This document shows positions 13,080 to 20,979 of a stretch of DNA of 21,239 nt, piece by piece. The translations under genes and the position numbers were made by a program. This DNA is from a virus: IMG/VR virus record IMGVR_UViG_3300010148_000157, positions 1 through 21,239 of that record. One strand, given 5' to 3'. Position 1 is the first letter of the stretch. Each line of letters opens with the position of its first letter. Below the pieces are notes generated by a model. That model worked only from the letters and a program-made list of their open reading frames with translations. It ran no database searches and was not told the origin of the DNA.

Positions 13080-14744
13080 ATGAATATTTTAGACGTAGCA
13101 ACACAGCCAACAAGTTCAAGAAAGCGCTTTGACAATTTAAGGCGTTACAATGCACTGCACTCTTTAGGTGACATGCTTATAGCGTATGGCGCACCTACAA
13201 AGGTTGGCGAAAATAATTTAAATGCGTTTATGCAAATTAGTGAAGCTGCCAATAAAAGAAATACTAATATTATGCAGCAAGAGCAGCAGTTTAACCAGGC
13301 ATCGTCATTACTGCCATTAGTTGATCAATACGCTACTTCACTTAACCTATCGCCAGAACGTATAGCACAAATCAAAGCAGATCCAGTAGGCAATGCGTCT
13401 TTTCTACAAGCATTACAAACTAATAATATGAATACGTCATTTGCTACATCTAAAGCAATTAAAGGTAATTTAGCGTCACTACAATTAGCAAAAGCAATGG
13501 GTATGCCTATGCTACAAAATAAATCTGAAGAGGAATTACAGGGTTTAAGTTCTAATACTCAACTGCAACCATTCCTACAAACCTTTATTCAAGAAAAAGC
13601 AAAAAGAGGATTTCCAGATTTACAAGTCATGCAATTAAATAATGGTCAACTTGCTGTTTTTGATAAAAATGGTATTGGATTAAAAGCTGACGGTAGTATT
13701 GATCAAAATATGATTACAATTATAGGTGACAAAAAAGCAAATACAATGAATGTCACAGAGCCTTCATACGATAAAGAAAAAGGTATGTGGATGCAAAAAA
13801 CAGTAATACTTGATAAAAATACACCAGACAAAACAAATTCATATGGATTTGCAGTTGTAGGACAATCACCATCAAGACCTTTATTTGCAGAAAAAACTTC
13901 AGATACACAAAAAGTACAAGACGCATTAGAAACATTGCAGATACCTGGAATAGATAAAAATAGTGCAGAATATAAAGCAGCTAAAATGTTTTTAGATAAG
14001 TACGCTAACCAGGGTAAAATGTCACTGGAAATAGGTGAAGACGGTTCAGTCAAATTTACGCAAGGCATGCCTGGTGATAGTGGATTATCTACTAAAATGG
14101 CTAATGACATTGACGATCAAATACTAACACTTGGTGAAGATCTTTTAAAATTAGATAATATTTTTGCTAATTTTGATCCATCATTTTTAACTTTAGGTGG
14201 AAGATTTGACAGGGCAAAACTTTCTTTTAAGGATTTAATGGCTGGCGCAATACCAGGTATAGATGCATTAGACGAGACAGAAAGAAATAGGTTATCTAGC
14301 CAAACAAATTTCTTTGCAGACGTAGCAGAACGATTTAACCAAATACTTTTAAAAATGTCTGGTGCAGCTGTTATGGAAGGTGAATTTAAACGACAAGCAG
14401 AAGCAAATCCAAACAAAAAAGATACGCCAACAGTTTTCATTACTAAAGTAAAACGCCAAATGAAATTTATTATTGGCGCTTTAGGACGATTAGATAAATT
14501 AAAAAAGCAAGGCATATCTGGTGATTTGTTTATGACAGAGTTAAAGAAAAACGGCTCTAGTATTTTTGGTGAAACTGTAGAAAGTGGTGACGAACATGTT
14601 GCTCAAATGATAACAAATAGAGCAGCTGAAATATTACAAGAAAATGAAAATTACGAACAACCTCAAGCTATTAATCTAGCTGTTCGTGAAGTATTTCAAG
14701 AACTAAACATACCACTAAGTTTTTTAAAATTTTACCGTAATTAA
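13080..14744 (+). CDS. internal virion (ejection) protein, helical
   Basis: 554 residues, mostly alpha-helical and Gln/Asn/Lys-rich, no signal peptide or clear membrane span. The N-terminal part contains SRKRFDNLRRYNALHSLGDM and a long helix (AFMQISEAANKRNTNIMQQE), while the C-terminal third has FFADVAERFNQILLKMSGAA followed by KRQAEANPNKKDTPTVFITK. I recognise it only as the type of large protein between the ejection protein and the longest internal protein of marine podoviruses. No lytic transglycosylase motif is seen. Function inferred from length, helicity and position. Its ribosome binding site is weak, and only three bases separate it from the previous stop, so translation may depend on coupling. 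Confidence 0.65.
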   Translation: MNILDVATQPTSSRKRFDNLRRYNALHSLGDMLIAYGAPTKVGENNLNAFMQISEAANKRNTNIMQQEQQFNQASSLLPLVDQYATSLNLSPERIAQIKADPVGNASFLQALQTNNMNTSFATSKAIKGNLASLQLAKAMGMPMLQNKSEEELQGLSSNTQLQPFLQTFIQEKAKRGFPDLQVMQLNNGQLAVFDKNGIGLKADGSIDQNMITIIGDKKANTMNVTEPSYDKEKGMWMQKTVILDKNTPDKTNSYGFAVVGQSPSRPLFAEKTSDTQKVQDALETLQIPGIDKNSAEYKAAKMFLDKYANQGKMSLEIGEDGSVKFTQGMPGDSGLSTKMANDIDDQILTLGEDLLKLDNIFANFDPSFLTLGGRFDRAKLSFKDLMAGAIPGIDALDETERNRLSSQTNFFADVAERFNQILLKMSGAAVMEGEFKRQAEANPNKKDTPTVFITKVKRQMKFIIGALGRLDKLKKQGISGDLFMTELKKNGSSIFGETVESGDEHVAQMITNRAAEILQENENYEQPQAINLAVREVFQELNIPLSFLKFYRN

Positions 14745-14755
14745 TAGGATAAAAA

Positions 14756-17233
14756 ATGAGTTTAGACGATCTATTGAGACAAGCAGCAAACGTACAGGAC
14801 AACAACACCCAAATAAATGCAGCTGGTGGTAATTTAAGTAATTTACTTACTGTTGCTGCTGGAGCAGATAACGCCAGTGAAGCAAATATTGCAGAAGTAC
14901 CAGAAGGCACAACTATTAATACTGGGTTTCAATCAGCTATGGGCATGGGATCCAGGATGGCTGGTTCATTTGCGTCTGATATGGGTGAAAGAATTAGAAT
15001 ACTGTCTAGGTTTAGTGGAATACCAGTAGAAGATTTCTTTTTAGATCCTACTGGCAACCTTGTTTACCGTACAGTTATGAATGGCAAGGAAACATACAAC
15101 AGGGTAGACCCAGGCGCTTTAGACAGCGCAAAAGAATTATTTAAACAAACAATGTTAACTGCTGGTCAAGCAAATGTTGCTGGTAACCCAAGTCAACAAG
15201 CGCAAGACATGAATGCTCAATTTGCAAAAGAATTACAGGAAACAAAAGTAACCGTTGATGACTTATCAGCTATTGGGTCTAGCATACTGGCAGAAACGCC
15301 AGCGTCTATTCCAGAAATGATTACAACTGGTGGCGTTGCAATGGCGCCTTTTACTGGTGGCACAAGTGTAATACCTGGTGCAATAGCTGGCGCAGTTGGT
15401 GAAGTGGGAAGGCAAGGTATAGGAAATTTGTTAGATCCACGTCCAGGCGCTAATATTGATATGGGGCAAGTGGCAACAGCTGCTGTTATTCCAGGCGCAT
15501 TAGAAGGTGGCAGTGCTGGTGTAAATTTTGCTAAAAATAAAATAATGGGTCAATCCCCTCCTCCTGGTGTTATCAATGCGTCAGATTTTGGAAAGATTAA
15601 GAAAAGCGTAAACGATCAAAGTCTTAATGATTTTATTACTATGGCACGAGATCAGTTTGGTATTGACTTGTCATTGCCCCAGGCATCTGGTCTTAGTTCA
15701 TTGCAAAAGCTAGAACGTAAAGTAAGGCGTAACCCAGACGCTGGTAATATATACGATGAATTTTTATTTGGTGATATTTCACCATTAACTGATCAAGTCG
15801 TGCAAATGGGTGGCCAGTACAAGCAAGTTAAAGAAGCTATTGAAAATATTTTATTGCCATCTGTAAATCGTAAACCTGGTAGCTTAGACGCACAAGCAGT
15901 TATTGGAAAAGCAATTGACGCATCAAGTCAAATAAAAGAAAAGTTTGTTAAAATGCGATCTAAAATATTTGATAAGTTTTACGCAAAGGCACGAATTGAA
16001 ACGCCTCAACTATCATTTAATGTGGCACGTAATGCCTGGCGATCTGTCGAGCAAATAATAAAAGACACATCTGGAACTCCTCAAGGCAAAATTATACAAC
16101 AATATGCTAATCAATTATACAAAGTTAAAATGAGAGACGGCAAGGTTGTTCCAAAACTTACCAGTGACGGTAAGCCTGTCCTCGATGGCGCTGGCCAGCC
16201 AATACCACAAATGGAATTTAGAACTGATATTAATAATTTAAATGAAATAAAAAAATCATTAGACACTTACATACAAAGAATTGACGATGACGCACCAGGC
16301 GCAGACAAAACAGCTAAGTTTGGTTTAAATGTTTTAAGAAGCGCATTACTCAATGGCATGAAAAACGAAAGTCCTAATTACGCTTTGGCATTAAAGTCAT
16401 TTGAAAACTTTACTAAAAATTACATGGATCCATTTGATAACTCTATTGCTGGTATAATAGGCAATTTAGGTAGAGATAAAACAAATGCAGTCAATGCATT
16501 AAGTAGAGTATTTTCAAGTAATCAAGTAACGCCAGGCGCACTGATGAGGTCATTTGAATACTTTAAACAATTACCAGGAGGCGCACAATTATTTAGAGAT
16601 GCACAGCGTGTTTACATAGAGCAGCAGTTTAAGAATATTGTTGAGAAAGTATCTAATACGCAAGCTGGTGACATGTCAGCAAATTTAGCGCAACGTGTAT
16701 ACGGTCAATTCTTTACACCAGAAAATATGAAAATATTAGCTGTTACAATGGATAACCCAAAAGATATAGAAAATATTGAAAAGATGGGCAAAGTAATGTT
16801 TGCCATACGTAACACGCTAAGAGAAGGATCACCAACAGCAACTGACATTAAAGACGCAGACGTTTTATCTTTAAGTGCTAAAGCTGGTCAACTAGCAGCT
16901 GACGTTGACGTAACAAAACCAGCGTCACTAATTGGAGCGTCACGTCAAAAAATAGACGATATTTTATACGGCCGTGCATACCAACAACTAGCAAAAATAT
17001 TTACATCAAAAGACGCATTGAGGCGCCTAGAGGCACTTAAAGAATTAGATCCTAAAGGCAAGACTGCCAGGGCAATTGTTATGGCTGTTCTTAATGCAGC
17101 AATAGACGGTAAGTATGATGAAGTTGAAGGACTAGATATTGAAGATTTACCACCTACACTAAAAGCAAAAATAGGTGACCTTCAATGGCAAAAAAATAAC
17201 TTATTTAAAAACCCTACAAATATAATTCAATGA
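14756..17233 (+). CDS. large internal virion (ejection) protein
   Basis: 825 residues, the longest in the window. Residues about 180-255 are Gly/Ala/Pro/Ile-rich and weakly hydrophobic (ETPASIPEMITTGGVAMAPF, then VIPGAIAGAVGEVGRQG and VIPGALEGGSAGVNFAK), which looks like a flexible membrane-active stretch. The rest is helical, with segments such as LKNFTKNYMDPFDNSIAG. Large proteins with such amphipathic Gly-rich stretches in podoviruses build the periplasmic channel for DNA entry. No enzymatic domain is evident. AGGAT (14746-14750) is the ribosome binding site. The stop overlaps the next start in an ATGA. Confidence 0.68.
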   Translation: MSLDDLLRQAANVQDNNTQINAAGGNLSNLLTVAAGADNASEANIAEVPEGTTINTGFQSAMGMGSRMAGSFASDMGERIRILSRFSGIPVEDFFLDPTGNLVYRTVMNGKETYNRVDPGALDSAKELFKQTMLTAGQANVAGNPSQQAQDMNAQFAKELQETKVTVDDLSAIGSSILAETPASIPEMITTGGVAMAPFTGGTSVIPGAIAGAVGEVGRQGIGNLLDPRPGANIDMGQVATAAVIPGALEGGSAGVNFAKNKIMGQSPPPGVINASDFGKIKKSVNDQSLNDFITMARDQFGIDLSLPQASGLSSLQKLERKVRRNPDAGNIYDEFLFGDISPLTDQVVQMGGQYKQVKEAIENILLPSVNRKPGSLDAQAVIGKAIDASSQIKEKFVKMRSKIFDKFYAKARIETPQLSFNVARNAWRSVEQIIKDTSGTPQGKIIQQYANQLYKVKMRDGKVVPKLTSDGKPVLDGAGQPIPQMEFRTDINNLNEIKKSLDTYIQRIDDDAPGADKTAKFGLNVLRSALLNGMKNESPNYALALKSFENFTKNYMDPFDNSIAGIIGNLGRDKTNAVNALSRVFSSNQVTPGALMRSFEYFKQLPGGAQLFRDAQRVYIEQQFKNIVEKVSNTQAGDMSANLAQRVYGQFFTPENMKILAVTMDNPKDIENIEKMGKVMFAIRNTLREGSPTATDIKDADVLSLSAKAGQLAADVDVTKPASLIGASRQKIDDILYGRAYQQLAKIFTSKDALRRLEALKELDPKGKTARAIVMAVLNAAIDGKYDEVEGLDIEDLPPTLKAKIGDLQWQKNNLFKNPTNIIQ

Positions 17234-17918: not shown

Positions 17919-18217
17919 TGCTTATGTTGTACAATTACATTTATTATTTTTTAATATTTTTCTGCGTAATATCTTTTTTATTTATTGTAGCGTTTGCAAG
18001 AGACAAGGAACACACGACATGCAGACTGGCAAAACAGTTATTAGAAAATAAAACCAGAGTTTGTGTTTATGTTGGTGCTAACTATACGCAATGGAATGAA
18101 TACGTTCCAATAGGCGCTGGTGAATGCCCCAGGGAAATACACTGTAAATACAGGCCAAATGAAAAACCATTTACATTAAAGAACGTCATAAAAAGCATAA
18201 AGGATAGTTTTAAATGA
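17918..18217 (+). CDS. membrane-anchored four-cysteine protein
   Basis: 99 residues. Residues 5-27 are one membrane span (YNYIYYFLIFFCVISFLFIV); the rest should lie in the periplasm and holds four cysteines (35, 49, 70, 76), with CPREIHCKY as the most recognisable part. The even number and an outward domain fit two disulfide bonds. I have seen related Cys-containing proteins after the preceding family in marine phages; function is unknown. It could act in lysis or in blocking entry of other phages (superinfection exclusion); neither is shown. The window lacks a recognisable spanin pair, and this lacks a lipobox. ATGA overlap with the next gene. Confidence 0.65.
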   Translation: MLMLYNYIYYFLIFFCVISFLFIVAFARDKEHTTCRLAKQLLENKTRVCVYVGANYTQWNEYVPIGAGECPREIHCKYRPNEKPFTLKNVIKSIKDSFK

Positions 18218-18531
18218 ACGCAAGAGTATACAACCACGATCTAGACGGTGACGGTAAAATTTCAAAAGAAGAATTAGAAATAGAAGAGCGTATGCTGCGT
18301 TTAGAAAATGCAGACAAAATGCAAGACCAGCAAAGACTGATGGCATGGGCAGCAATGGCGTCAAGTATTGTTACTGTTATTGTTCTTTTATTACCAATAC
18401 TTGATGTATCACGCATGCAAGCTGCTGGTGCATTTTTAAATACTTTCTTGGTTGCCCAGACTTCAGTAGTTATTGGCTTTATGGGCGCAACAGCTTGGAC
18501 ACGAAAAAAGGAAAATGGCAATGGTAAATGA
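18214..18531 (+). CDS. EF-hand plus two-TM membrane protein, holin-like
   Basis: 105 residues. Residues 9-20 are a canonical EF-hand loop (DLDGDGKISKEE): Asp9, Asp11, Asp13, Gly14, Ile16, Ser17 and Glu20 fill the calcium-binding places. A charged helix follows (EIEERMLRLENADKMQD), then two membrane spans at about 44-63 (LMAWAAMASSIVTVIVLLLP) and 72-92 (FLNTFLVAQTSVVIGFMG) and a basic tail. Two spans with a charged end resemble class II holins; a calcium-binding loop on such a protein is unusual, although I recall EF-hand-bearing small membrane proteins in marine phages. Only eight residues precede the loop, so the first helix of a normal EF-hand is missing. It overlaps both neighbours by ATGA. 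Confidence 0.7.
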   Translation: MNARVYNHDLDGDGKISKEELEIEERMLRLENADKMQDQQRLMAWAAMASSIVTVIVLLLPILDVSRMQAAGAFLNTFLVAQTSVVIGFMGATAWTRKKENGNGK

Positions 18532-18909: not shown

Positions 18910-19290
18910 ATGGTTTTATCAAGCCTAATAGCACCAGCTACAAAAATATTAGATAAGTTTATACCAGACGCTGACACAAAACAAAAGTTGGCGCATGACT
19001 TAGCGACAATGGCCGATAAGCATTCTCAAGAGCAAATACTCGCTCAATTGGCAATTGCTAAAGAAGACGCAAAAGGTAATTGGTTCCAGTCATCCTGGCG
19101 TCCACTTATTGGTTGGATCGCTGGCCTGTCACTAGCTATCAATTATTTAATTTCTCCAATTTGCGCTGGCTTTGGGTTTGTAATACCCCAGGCAGATATG
19201 AGTGTAATGATGCCAATATTACTTGGTATGTTAGGCATTGGTGGCATGAGAAGTTTTGACAAGCTAAACAAAACTGACACTAAAAAATGA
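18910..19290 (+). CDS. holin, three-TM family
   Basis: 126 residues. The N-terminal half is an amphipathic helix (IAPATKILDKFIPDADTKQK, then helices to residue 55), followed by the family marker WFQSSWRPLIGWIAGLSLAI (58-77), a hydrophobic SPICAGFGFVI and a last hydrophobic MPILLGMLGIGGM (101-113). The Ser-Trp-Arg-Pro-Leu-Ile-Gly-Trp signature is typical of Holin_3TM/GTA-type holins. It would pore the inner membrane at a set time so the downstream lysozyme, which has no signal peptide, reaches the cell wall. A strong ribosome binding site, AGAGGAG, ends 7 bases before ATG. The ATGA overlap couples it to the tiny basic proteins that follow. Confidence 0.82.
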   Translation: MVLSSLIAPATKILDKFIPDADTKQKLAHDLATMADKHSQEQILAQLAIAKEDAKGNWFQSSWRPLIGWIAGLSLAINYLISPICAGFGFVIPQADMSVMMPILLGMLGIGGMRSFDKLNKTDTKK

Positions 19291-19553
19291 GAAAAAGAAT
19301 AAAGTTAACTGCCAAACACAAATCAAAATCTGGTGGATTAAATGCTGCTGGTAGACGAGCAGCTAAAGCGCAAGGATCTAATTTAAAAGCGCCAGTTTCA
19401 TCTAAGCAAGCAAAGAAATCACCAGCTGCTGCAAAACGCAGAAAAAGTTTTTGCGCCAGAATGTCTGGCATGAAGAAAAAGCTAACCAGTGCCAAGACTG
19501 CTAGAGATCCCAATAGCAGAATTAATAAGGCCTTACGTAAATGGGATTGTTAA
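19287..19553 (+). CDS. small basic protein (DUF6321-like)
   Basis: 88 residues, very rich in Lys/Arg/Ala/Ser. It contains GGLNAAGRRAAKAQGSNLKA (20-39) and a highly conserved C-terminal end (KSFCARMSGMKKKLTSAKTA, then RDPNSRINKALRKWDC). I recognise this from many marine phages, where the C-terminal RDPNSRINKALRKW motif is almost invariant; I recall the family label DUF6321 but am not certain of it. Two cysteines (in FCARM and at the very end) might coordinate a metal or pair. Charge and size suggest nucleic-acid binding, perhaps inside the virion or on host DNA; unproven. ATGA overlap with the holin. Confidence 0.78.
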   Translation: MRKRIKLTAKHKSKSGGLNAAGRRAAKAQGSNLKAPVSSKQAKKSPAAAKRRKSFCARMSGMKKKLTSAKTARDPNSRINKALRKWDC

Positions 19554-19566
19554 AGGAGAAACTATT

Positions 19567-19650
19567 ATGCCGTATGGAACAGGAACTTATGGATCTACTA
19601 AAGGCAGACCAGCCAAAAAATCTAAAAAGAAAACTAAGAAAGGCAAGTAA
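19567..19650 (+). CDS. 27-residue basic protein MPYGTGTYG...
   Basis: A 27-residue frame (MPYGTGTYGSTKGRPAKKSK followed by KKTKKGK) with a strong ribosome binding site AAGGAG (19553-19558). The MPYGxGTYGSxxGRPxKK opening is one I know from many marine phages, so I regard this as a real gene despite its size. Eleven of 27 residues are basic, clustered at the C-terminus, with GRP resembling an AT-hook core (Arg-Gly-Arg-Pro is the classical form). Minor-groove DNA binding is an inference. It lies in a compact run of four such genes. Confidence 0.72.
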   Translation: MPYGTGTYGSTKGRPAKKSKKKTKKGK

Positions 19651-19815
19651 ATGAGTTTATACAGAAACATTGCAAAAAAAAGAGCCAGGATAAAAGCTGG
19701 CTCTGGTGAGAGAATGCGCAAGCCTGGAACTAAAGGCGCTCCAACTAACGCAGCATTTAAAGCAGCTGCTAAGACAGCTAAGAAACCTAAGAAAAAAGGT
19801 AAGAAAGGTAAATAA
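19651..19815 (+). CDS. 54-residue basic protein MSLYRNIAKKRA...
   Basis: 54 residues beginning directly at the base after the preceding stop. Its opening MSLYRNIAKKRARIKAGSGE and the following RMRKPGTKGAPTNAAFKAAA are a pattern I recognise from marine phages; the end is a Lys/Gly tail (KPKKKGKKGK) much like that of the preceding gene. There is no space for a normal ribosome binding site except AAAGGC/AAG within the upstream gene, so it is probably translated by coupling. Function unknown; charge suggests binding of nucleic acid or ribosomes. Confidence 0.72.
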   Translation: MSLYRNIAKKRARIKAGSGERMRKPGTKGAPTNAAFKAAAKTAKKPKKKGKKGK

Positions 19816-19817
19816 AT

Positions 19818-19976
19818 ATGGCAGTCAAGGCATTAACTCAAAGGCAAAAAGATACACTGAAAAGACACTCAGTGCATCACACGTCTAAGCACATGACTGA
19901 GATGCGCAAGCTAATGCGATCTGGAAAGACGTTCACTCAATCACATAAAATAGCAATGAAAAAAATTGGGAAGTAA
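19818..19976 (+). CDS. 52-residue basic helical protein
   Basis: 52 residues: MAVKALTQRQKDTLKRHSVH, then HTSKHMTEMRKLMRSGKTFT and QSHKIAMKKIGK. The pattern LTxRQxxTLKxHSxHHTxKHMxxMRKxMxxGKTFTxxH is recognisable from small proteins of marine phages; four His and many Lys occur in amphipathic helices. No function known to me; helix-helix DNA contact is possible. It sits between the previous basic gene (2-base gap) and the lysozyme (2-base gap). An overlapping frame at 19706-19888 in another phase is rejected as a shadow. Confidence 0.72.
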   Translation: MAVKALTQRQKDTLKRHSVHHTSKHMTEMRKLMRSGKTFTQSHKIAMKKIGK

Positions 19977-19978
19977 AT

Positions 19979-20434
19979 ATGATAAGTCCAAAATCTATGA
20001 ATGAATTAGTTGATGAAATAAAAAGAGATGAAGGCGCTGTTGTAGAAAATGGACGCCACGTTGCCTACGCTGACAGCGAAGGTTATTGGACAATTGGTGT
20101 AGGAAGACTTATAGACAGCAAGTTACCTGGCGCTGGTCTAAGAGACAGTGAAGTAGAGCAAATGCTACAGAATGATTTAAGTGAATGTGTCGAAGACTGT
20201 CAAAAGACTTTTGCCTGGTTTAACGATTTACCAGACTTAGCAAAAAAAGCATTGGTAAATATGCGCTTTAATGTTGGAATGCCACGTCTTAAAAAATTTG
20301 AAAAAATGTTAAACGCCTTGGAAACTGGTCAATTTGAATGGGCAGCAGAAGAATGTTTGGACAGCAGATGGAGTAGGCAAGTGGGCGCAAGAAGTGAAAG
20401 AATTGCTGAACTCTATCGATCATGCGCCACTTAG
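19979..20434 (+). CDS. endolysin, T4-type lysozyme (GH24)
   Basis: 151 residues. The catalytic set of T4-type lysozymes is in place: Glu18 (in IKRDEG), Asp32 and Thr38 within YADSEGYWTIGVGRLID, and the later FNVGMPRLKKFEKMLNAL. The Glu-to-Asp distance is 14 residues, against 9 in T4, so the loop between them (VVENGRHVA) is longer by five. It cleaves the beta-1,4 bond between N-acetylmuramic acid and N-acetylglucosamine. No signal peptide is seen, so it needs the upstream holin for release. Ribosome binding site GGGAAG (19968-19973). Its stop is only two bases away from the minus-strand gene. Confidence 0.93.
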   Translation: MISPKSMNELVDEIKRDEGAVVENGRHVAYADSEGYWTIGVGRLIDSKLPGAGLRDSEVEQMLQNDLSECVEDCQKTFAWFNDLPDLAKKALVNMRFNVGMPRLKKFEKMLNALETGQFEWAAEECLDSRWSRQVGARSERIAELYRSCAT

Positions 20435-20436
20435 GG

Positions 20437-20979
20437 TTAAATTAATTTAGCATTACTGTAATCTTTAATGTAATCTTTAATGTCTTTAAGGCGATCATTA
20501 GTATAATCAAAATCTGGATTTTTTTGATAGTCCTCACAAAGAACCCAAGTAACTAAACCCTTATAAGTTTTGTTAGTATAATTCTGGACTTTAATTTTTT
20601 CTATTCTAAATCCTAATGCCTTTAATGAAGATCCAGTTTCACCTGGCTGCGTGTATGTAACTATATATTTAAAACCTAAAGCAAAACACGCTGTAATAGC
20701 TTTTCCTAATAAAAAACTAGCGACATTTTTAATATTAGTTTCTATTGGCAATCCAGAAATATCTTTTGTTACAAGCCTACGAATTTCAATATGATCTCTT
20801 CTTTTAGACCATTCATGGCTAGAACAAGTATCAACTGTTACAACACCTAATAAAATTCCATATTCATCTTTAGCGCCAATAGAAAATTTGTGACGCTTTA
20901 GTGGTTTGCTGTGCCTATGGTGAAGTAATGTAAATTGAGCAGCTTCTTGTAGCTTTATTCTTATATGTTGAAGTTTCAT
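20437..20979 (-). CDS. XF1762-like protein (GNAT-looking fold)
   Basis: 180 residues. I recognise the XF1762-type pattern: LLHHRHSKP (18-26), HKFSIGAKD (30-38), a strand with GILLGVVTVDT, then RRDHIEIRRLVT, NVASFLLGKAITACFALGFK and IVTYTQPGETGSSLKALGFR. The last four follow the order of GNAT acetyltransferase strands and the Ser-Leu-x-x-Leu-Gly-Phe end. The HHRH motif is notable as possible catalytic or metal residues. Substrate unknown; a link to Mom-type DNA modification is a hypothesis from fold only. The C-terminus IKDYIKDY arose from a 12-base tandem duplication. It is co-transcribed with the minus-strand gene upstream (ATGA overlap). Confidence 0.72.
   Translation of the reverse strand: MKLQHIRIKLQEAAQFTLLHHRHSKPLKRHKFSIGAKDEYGILLGVVTVDTCSSHEWSKRRDHIEIRRLVTKDISGLPIETNIKNVASFLLGKAITACFALGFKYIVTYTQPGETGSSLKALGFRIEKIKVQNYTNKTYKGLVTWVLCEDYQKNPDFDYTNDRLKDIKDYIKDYSNAKLI
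20458..20481 (-). repeat. 12-base tandem duplication at the 3' end of the XF1762-like gene
   Basis: GTAATCTTTAAT occurs twice in tandem (20458-20469 and 20470-20481, plus-strand orientation), with a degenerate third part following. On the minus strand it encodes IKDY twice, keeps the frame, and adds four residues just before the C-terminus. Confidence 0.85.

What the first reader, a model, noticed from the sequence alone, without database searches (positions are those of the whole stretch)
19287..19976. Cluster of four tiny, very basic proteins between holin and lysozyme
88, 27, 54 and 52 residues, all Lys/Arg-rich, in one coupled run; two end in near-identical Lys/Gly tails. I recognise each opening pattern from marine phages but no function. 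They might condense DNA in the head (histone-like), bind host nucleoid or inhibit ribosomes. Tiny genes of this kind are missed by most gene callers.
Basis: partly seen in the sequence, partly recalled or inferred. Interest (0 to 1): 0.52.

Follow-up and report, generated by a model that had tools for sequence, protein, structure and literature searches.

The report
Basic mini-proteins for phage heads
Four tiny, strongly positively charged proteins sit side by side in this marine phage; related proteins recur in many aquatic phages, several of them beside head-building genes, and they are most likely packed with the DNA inside the virus head.

Summary
The four genes are real: 88, 27, 54 and 52 residues, net charge +26, +10, +19, +12, one coupled run between holin and lysozyme, under purifying selection (dN/dS about 0.2-0.34). 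P1 is Pfam DUF6321, P3 and P4 match function-unknown PHROGs, P2 matches neither library. They form a shuffled cassette in viral contigs: partners lie within 600 bp three to five times more often than under random placement, and fuse (P2+P4 in 12 loci; P3+P1 in 42 distinct proteins). Three lines point to the head. Members lie in the head-gene block of six cultured T7-like phages. In T4-like contigs, short DUF6321 proteins often carry a leader like that of T4 internal head proteins (9/21, 19/45, 12/21 in three sets, against 3-9% of neighbouring genes). S-CREM2 gp137, which ends in DUF6321, was detected in virions. Against: a leader-bearing relative is not named in the S-SZBM1 virion paper, long forms mostly lack the leader, the window's proteins lack it, and no member was found in P-SSP7 or Syn5. 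Best reading: accessory, capsid-interior, DNA-binding mini-proteins. DNA binding itself is untested.

The parts
18910..19290 (+). Holin (GTA_holin_3TM), upstream neighbour whose stop overlaps P1's start
   Evidence: PF11351 3.3e-15; phrog_3427 holin 5.1e-27
19287..19553 (+). P1, 88 aa, DUF6321 domain; net charge +26; predicted helical domain
   Evidence: PF19846 8e-21, 74.9 bits v cut-off 28.5; AF2 pLDDT 85.4, pTM 0.65
19567..19650 (+). P2, 27 aa, MPYGTGTYGSTKGRPAKK..., net +10; invariant GRP (AT-hook-like core, motif recalled)
   Evidence: alignment A4; GRP in 13 of 13 distinct P2 sequences; no Pfam match
19651..19815 (+). P3, 54 aa, SLYRNIAKKRARIKAGSGERMRKPG..., net +19, Lys/Gly tail
   Evidence: phrog_16028 1.7e-19, function unknown; alignment A3
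19818..19976 (+). P4, 52 aa, net +12; predicted three-helix mini-domain with invariant His 17, 21, 25, 43
   Evidence: phrog_31838 9.1e-10; alignment A2; AF2 pLDDT 93.0, pTM 0.73
19979..20434 (+). Phage lysozyme, downstream neighbour
   Evidence: PF00959 1.2e-13

Best explanation
The four genes are a cassette of conserved, interchangeable basic mini-proteins made late in infection. They enter the head during assembly or packaging and sit among the packaged DNA, where their lysines and arginines contact the phosphate backbone and help neutralise or organise the DNA. T4-like aquatic phages use two of the modules (P3, P1) fused into one protein, often behind a capsid-targeting leader; this phage uses them unfused. 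Shown: the genes, their conservation, charge, clustering, fusions, head-block position in six cultured phages, leader enrichment on short T4-like relatives, and one relative in virions. Inferred: that the window's proteins are in the virion, and that they bind DNA there. They are accessory, not universal.
For: Purifying selection. Net charge always positive: P1 domain +6 to +27 in 141 distinct sequences and +8 to +18 in 120 from L258-L417. Clustering: P1 within 600 bp of P3 in 44 of 52 P3 loci that hold P1 (12.6 expected); of P4 in 33 of 37 (9.3 expected); P2 near P4 26 of 26 (5.9 expected; 12 loci have the two as one fused ORF); P3 near P4 25 of 25 (5.3 expected). Fusions: P2+P4 in 12 loci, P1+P3 in 4 of L009-L248; 42 distinct P3+P1 proteins in L258-L417, all in the order P3 then P1. 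Position: scaffold-[members]-capsid in HTVC201P, HTVC134P, CRP-403, S-SBP1 and P-SCSP2; capsid-[P2,P1,P3]-tail tube in P-SCSP1f. Leader plus protease site modelled on T4 IPI/II/III: 9/21, 19/45 and 12/21 of DUF6321 proteins <250 aa against 16/522, 42/459 and 13/366 other genes in the same loci. Of the 25 contigs longer than 61 kb behind those loci, 19 encode a T4-type prohead protease (PF03420) and 20 a gp23-type capsid protein; 0 of 18 records with unfused forms have the protease (nine are contigs that may be incomplete). S-CREM2 gp137, which ends in DUF6321 (44.7 bits), was detected in its virion proteome with 4 unique peptides (PMC10665884 Table 3, passages). In T4, ipIII and ipII lie next to lysozyme gene e. 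A T4 review says that among positively charged residues only lysines of internal proteins were seen touching DNA phosphates (PMC3012670, passages).
Against: S-SZBM1 gp084 starts MKTFKQYITEA and ends in DUF6321, but is not named in the held text of the paper that reports 30 virion proteins (its number 192 there is inferred from a constant offset). The 4 peptides of S-CREM2 gp137 cover 4.1% and may not include the domain. Long DUF6321 proteins mostly lack the leader: 1/19, 6/19, 0/40. In loci found with the window's P1 the leader is on 0/25 extended forms, and with P3 or P4 on 3/34; on stand-alone forms 0/16, 0/38 and 0/29. A fixed-length leader pattern set earlier gave 0 of 61 in the domain-only set; the two-part pattern was made after that, and the three sets share some contigs. 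Window proteins: 0 of 4 carry a leader. In S-SBP1 the scaffold-capsid gap also holds hli and psbA, so it is a cargo site too. No member found in P-SSP7 (44,970 of 45,176 bases) or Syn5. No fold or Pfam evidence of DNA binding.
Confidence: 0.47

Rival explanations
1. Packaged and ejected effectors: the mini-proteins travel in the head but act in the new host, coating the nucleoid or shielding phage DNA, as T4 IPI* blocks a restriction enzyme.
For: T4-type leaders on short relatives; T4 IPI* is injected and inhibits gmrS/gmrD (PMC3012670, passages); a Mom-like DNA modification gene follows the lysozyme.
Against: The same families occur in phages of cyanobacteria, SAR11, a roseobacter and Limnohabitans with conserved basic residues; T4's internal proteins are described as highly diverse. 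A host-independent target such as DNA fits better, but this is an inference.
Confidence: 0.2
2. Assembly aids: basic clamps or adaptors that act on the scaffold, terminase or capsid lattice during head assembly and leave before maturity.
For: Head-block position in six cultured phages; portal and terminase clusters among the larger neighbour clusters; DUF6321 protein between the terminase subunit genes in S-SZBM1 and S-CREM2.
Against: One relative was detected in virions; the other common site is the lysis module, as in the window; no member found in P-SSP7 or Syn5.
Confidence: 0.15
3. Lysis accessories: cationic peptides that help holin and lysozyme break the envelope.
For: Window position; the window's holin family within 600 bp in 26 of 80 P4 loci and 7 of 80 P3 loci; three endolysin clusters of 20, 11 and 7 loci among neighbours in the 160 loci L089-L248 (one representative of each was identified).
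Against: No hydrophobic segment: highest 19-residue hydropathy -1.24 to -0.31 against 1.72 for the holin. Six cultured phages place members among head genes.
Confidence: 0.07
4. Inhibitors of host translation or transcription that bind ribosome or RNA.
For: Size and charge. Weak single-member Pfam matches only: SRP19 E 0.037 to one P3 member; TGT E 0.05 and a LARS1 domain E 0.4 to one P4 member each.
Against: Those matches are at chance level; late-gene position in the well-annotated contexts is not where early host-takeover genes are expected; leaders on relatives.
Confidence: 0.05

Closest known systems
Pfam DUF6321 (PF19846)
   Same: P1 matches over the whole 72-position model at 74.9 bits, cut-off 28.5
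   Different: DUF6321 is a domain of unknown function; no paper in the library holds the word
PHROGs 4689/727 (P1), 16028 (P3), 31838 (P4)
   Same: Strong matches
   Different: All are listed as function unknown; P2 matches no PHROG at E 1
Bacteriophage T4 internal head proteins IPI, IPII, IPIII
   Same: Small, lysine-containing; ipII and ipIII lie next to lysozyme in T4; short DUF6321 relatives in T4-like contigs share the leader and protease-site pattern
   Different: The window's proteins have no such leader and are far more basic (T4 IPI, IPII, IPIII K+R/D+E are 13/11, 19/15, 34/25)
Chlorovirus PBCV-1 'basic adaptor domain' proteins A278L and A282L
   Same: Basic, DNA-associated proteins packaged in a dsDNA virus (PMC3281028, passages)
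   Different: Kinase-fused 63-69 kDa proteins of an algal virus; sequences not compared here
AT-hook (HMGA-type minor-groove peptide; recalled)
   Same: P2 keeps GRP in 13 of 13 distinct sequences, with K/R within three residues after it in 13 and before it in 12
   Different: No Pfam match for any of 10 members at E 10; not the full recalled consensus

Membership tests
DUF6321 (PF19846) | Score over Pfam's curated cut-off | tested here: met
   74.9 bits v 28.5
T4-type internal head proteins | N-terminal capsid-targeting leader with prohead-protease site in the window's own proteins | tested here: not met
   0 of 4 match the strict or loose pattern
T4-type internal head proteins | Such a leader on short DUF6321 relatives in T4-like contigs | tested here: met
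   9/21, 19/45, 12/21 v 16/522, 42/459, 13/366; fails for long forms, 0/40 in the domain-only set
T4-type internal head proteins | A T4-type prohead protease encoded by the same virus | tested here: met
   For relatives: 19 of 25 contigs longer than 61 kb; 0 of 18 records with unfused forms. Not tested for the window, which is a fragment
T4-type internal head proteins | Presence in mature virions | tested here: inconclusive
   From papers on relatives only: S-CREM2 gp137 detected, S-SZBM1 gp084 not named
AT-hook proteins | Match to the Pfam model | tested here: inconclusive
   0 families for 10 members, but HMMER filters drop most weak matches; GRP core kept in 13 of 13
Histone-like or other known DNA-binding folds | Sequence or fold match | tested here: inconclusive
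   No PDB sequence match for P1, P3, P4 at E 1 (P2 not searched); no fold match at E 0.001 for P1, P4
Holin or spanin-type lysis proteins | Hydrophobic membrane segment | tested here: not met
   Maximum 19-residue hydropathy below zero in all four
Chlorovirus basic adaptor domain | Sequence homology | not tested
   No such sequence was fetched

The most novel reading that the evidence does not exclude
Aquatic tailed phages share a modular, chromatin-like toolkit of basic mini-domains (a minor-groove peptide P2, a helical DUF6321 domain P1, a linker-like P3 and a three-helix, possibly metal-binding P4) that coats the packaged genome; T7-like phages make it as separate mini-proteins, T4-like phages as fused, protease-processed internal proteins.
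Probability: 0.22. Interest if true: 0.82.

Novelty: new variant of a known kind. Interest (0 to 1): 0.58.

Why it matters
A 2012 paper states that there is no evidence that basic proteins contribute much to neutralising phage DNA (PMC3281028, passages), although a T4 review reports lysines of internal proteins in contact with DNA phosphates (PMC3012670, passages). If these mini-proteins are in the head, they would be a widespread case in phages of abundant ocean bacteria, would give a testable role to DUF6321 and several function-unknown families, and would show that the same modules serve as free mini-proteins in one phage type and as fused internal head proteins in another.

Tried and rejected
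Fold comparison: P1 gave one Foldseek match at E 9.8 and VIA Z 2.6; P4 gave 13 at E 5 or more and best VIA Z 3.0. Neither is informative. Weak Pfam matches of P4 to PEX11 (6 of 13 members, best E 0.0049; for the window's P4 15.2 bits v cut-off 23.8) were dismissed as helix and charge similarity.

A first leader test gave 37 of 104 extended DUF6321 ORFs against 97 of 976 genes in the same loci and 8 of 1661 in L009-L248, but used loci found with leader-bearing queries, one of which used the leader itself as a search word. I therefore repeated it with a domain-only query: the fixed-length pattern then matched 0 of 61. A two-part pattern fitted to T4 IPI-III and made after seeing those data gave the figures reported. 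Rows with open 5' ends and duplicates by the first 25 residues were dropped before these counts; sequences are related and some contigs occur in more than one set, so p-values overstate.

Cellular genomes: 17 loci, 16 from metagenome-assembled genomes and one from an isolate, Nonlabens xiamenensis; not followed further apart from an HMM scan in which P1 is found in all 17 and P3 in one. P1's own closest viral loci rarely hold partners (P3 13, P4 5, P2 2 of 80), so the cassette is common around P3 and P4 but not around every DUF6321. Of 55 P2-type genes only 14 have P1, P3 or P4 within 1 kb. The neighbour clusters were identified by one representative each for 20 clusters; the remaining clusters, the largest among them, which looks like the window's holin, were not scanned.

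Papers: none in the library holds 'DUF6321'. Searches for small basic phage proteins, histone-like phage proteins and internal head proteins of cyanophages listed nothing that describes this cassette; of the papers listed there I read passages of PMC9860041 and PMC3281028 only. In the P-SCSP1u cryo-EM paper a find gave no occurrence of gp17 or gp18 (PMC10575957). Passages of PMC3037559, PMC9602691, PMC9964418 and PMC13002823 gave nothing that names these proteins.

Full report
What is there. The window (a 21,239-base viral record) is the late half of a tailed phage: head scaffold, major head protein, virion proteins, a DNA-ejection protein, then holin, four tiny ORFs, lysozyme, and a convergent Mom-like gene. 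The four ORFs lie at 19287-19553, 19567-19650, 19651-19815 and 19818-19976. P1's start overlaps the holin stop; the others follow at 13, 0 and 2 nt. Their K+R/D+E counts are 28/2, 10/0, 20/1 and 14/2.

Are they genes? ORF coverage of the 690 bp is 99.7% and none of 1000 dinucleotide shuffles reaches it. Pairwise dN/dS is about 0.31, 0.34, 0.23 and 0.20 for P1-P4 (pairs are not independent). The window's P1 keeps 85% identity with L009 at a synonymous difference of 0.92.

Families. P1 is DUF6321. P3 matches phrog_16028 and P4 phrog_31838, both of unknown function. In the phage collection P1 is in 289 records, P3 in 66, P4 in 8; for P1 the organism names are cyanophages (Synechococcus, Prochlorococcus, Planktothrix), Pelagibacter phages, marine viruses and uncultured phages.

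The cassette. In viral contigs found with P3 or P4 (the best 80 of each scan), partner families lie within 600 bp: P1 in 44 of 52 P3 loci that hold it and in 33 of 37 P4 loci, P2 in 26 of 26 and P3 in 25 of 25 P4 loci, each three to five times the number expected for random placement in the same loci. The orders vary: P1-P3-P4, P3-P4-holin, lysozyme-P4-P1, lysozyme-P2-P4 and others. P2 and P4 are one 77-residue protein in 12 loci, and P3 and P1 are one protein in 42 distinct sequences of L258-L417. Such swapping and fusion suggests shared function. The link is not universal: loci found with P1 hold P3 in only 13 of 80, and P2-type genes have a partner within 1 kb in 14 of 55.

Where they sit. 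I fetched the surroundings of members in eleven cultured phages that are not T4-like, chosen by me from the hit lists. Six T7-like phages place members in the head block: between scaffold and capsid genes in HTVC201P, HTVC134P, CRP-403, S-SBP1 and P-SCSP2, and between capsid and tail-tube genes in P-SCSP1f. HTVC111P has P4 after lysozyme; Lederberg has P1 about 1.3 kb from a peptidase gene; MED4-184, Hodr and DC33 are too little annotated to tell. No member was found in P-SSP7 or Syn5. Among the 160 loci L089-L248, neighbour clusters identified by one representative each are endolysins (20, 11 and 7 loci), portal (19, 8, 6), terminase (19, 8) and integrase (19), and the window's holin family lies within 600 bp in 26 of 80 P4 and 7 of 80 P3 loci. 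The scaffold-capsid gap of S-SBP1 also holds hli and psbA, so position alone does not prove a head role.

Link to the head interior. In T4-like aquatic phages DUF6321 is often the C-terminal part of a longer protein: S-P4 gp060 is annotated as a structural protein, and S-SZBM1 gp084 reads MKTFKQYITEA..., like T4 IPII and IPIII, MKTYQEFIAEA.... A pattern of leader plus protease site, fitted to T4 IPI-III, matches 9/21, 19/45 and 12/21 DUF6321 proteins shorter than 250 residues in three sets, against 16/522, 42/459 and 13/366 other genes in the same loci. It matches 1/19, 6/19 and 0/40 longer ones, 0/25 and 3/34 extended forms in loci found with the window's P1 and with P3 or P4, and no stand-alone form (0/16, 0/38, 0/29). 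The pattern was made after an earlier one failed on the domain-only set (0 of 61), and the sets share some contigs. Of the 25 contigs longer than 61 kb behind these three sets, 19 encode a T4-type prohead protease and 20 a gp23-type capsid protein, so most are T4-like and hold the enzyme that such a site needs; 0 of 18 records with unfused members encode that protease (nine are contigs that may be incomplete). Papers state that such leaders of about ten residues carry proteins into the T4 prohead and are then cut off (PMC7697877, passages; PMC3012670, passages).

Direct evidence. S-CREM2 gp137 ends in DUF6321 and is in the table of proteins detected in that phage's virion proteome, with 4 unique peptides and 4.1% coverage; the authors themselves caution that some proteins may have stayed with virions through CsCl purification (PMC10665884, passages). 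S-SZBM1 gp084 is not named in its paper's held text (PMC9146016, find); its number there, 192, follows from the constant offset between paper and record numbering. K/R-rich proteins give poor tryptic peptides, so absence is weak evidence, but it is evidence against.

Structure. P1 is predicted as a helical domain (pLDDT 85.4), P4 as three helices (pLDDT 93.0), with no informative fold match. P4 keeps four histidines in 13 of 13 aligned sequences, which suggests, but does not show, metal binding. P2 keeps GRP in 13 of 13 distinct sequences, the recalled core of the AT-hook.

Mechanism. The simplest reading is that these are accessory proteins packed with the DNA, whose lysines contact phosphates, as reported for lysines of T4 internal proteins (PMC3012670). 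Ejection into the host with a protective or nucleoid-binding role is the main rival and would share the same packaging step. A lysis role is disfavoured by the lack of any hydrophobic segment and by the head-block positions. Nothing here measures DNA binding.

Novelty. The separate families were already collected as function-unknown entries. What appears new is that they form one shuffled, fusing set that links unfused mini-proteins of T7-like phages with internal-protein-like fusions of T4-like phages; my literature searches found no description, within a library that lacks most subscription journals.

Noticed in passing
window 20437-20979 (-): Mom-like DNA modification protein (phrog_1384, 6.8e-17), convergent with the late operon.
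   Followed up: no
window 18214-18531: Small protein with an EF-hand-like DLDGDGKISKEEL stretch (PF13202 E 0.00014, below cut-off) followed by hydrophobic segments, upstream of the holin.
   Followed up: no
window 14756-17233 and 13080-14744: 825- and 554-residue proteins downstream of a DNA-ejection protein with no PHROG match at 0.01; candidates for further ejection proteins.
   Followed up: no
window 19681-19704: Stem of 8 pairs followed by a T-run on the minus strand, inside P3's coding sequence; terminator-like for antisense transcripts.
   Followed up: no
L002:4909-4980 (P-SCSP1f) and L436:2655-2744 (S-SBP1): Unannotated P2 genes in cultured cyanophage records.
   Followed up: partly
L162:4505-5809 and its cluster: A cluster of integrase-like genes beside the cassette in 19 P4 loci (one representative identified), so some carriers may be temperate.
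   Followed up: no
L438 (Limnohabitans phage DC33, PQ492659): A 39-kb record labelled Inoviridae carries a P3 gene; the taxonomy label looks wrong for that genome size.
   Followed up: no
L441 (OQ414635): Record named Hodr carries locus tags of another phage, EXVC032PBaldr.
   Followed up: no
L008:3630-5219, L007:2688-5672: Cyanophage structural-type proteins that look like strings of small basic Cys/Trp-containing modules, of which DUF6321 is the only one Pfam recognises.
   Followed up: partly
S-CREM2 virion table (PMC10665884): A CRISPR-Cas9-like nuclease and a SAM hydrolase are listed among proteins detected in the virion.
   Followed up: no
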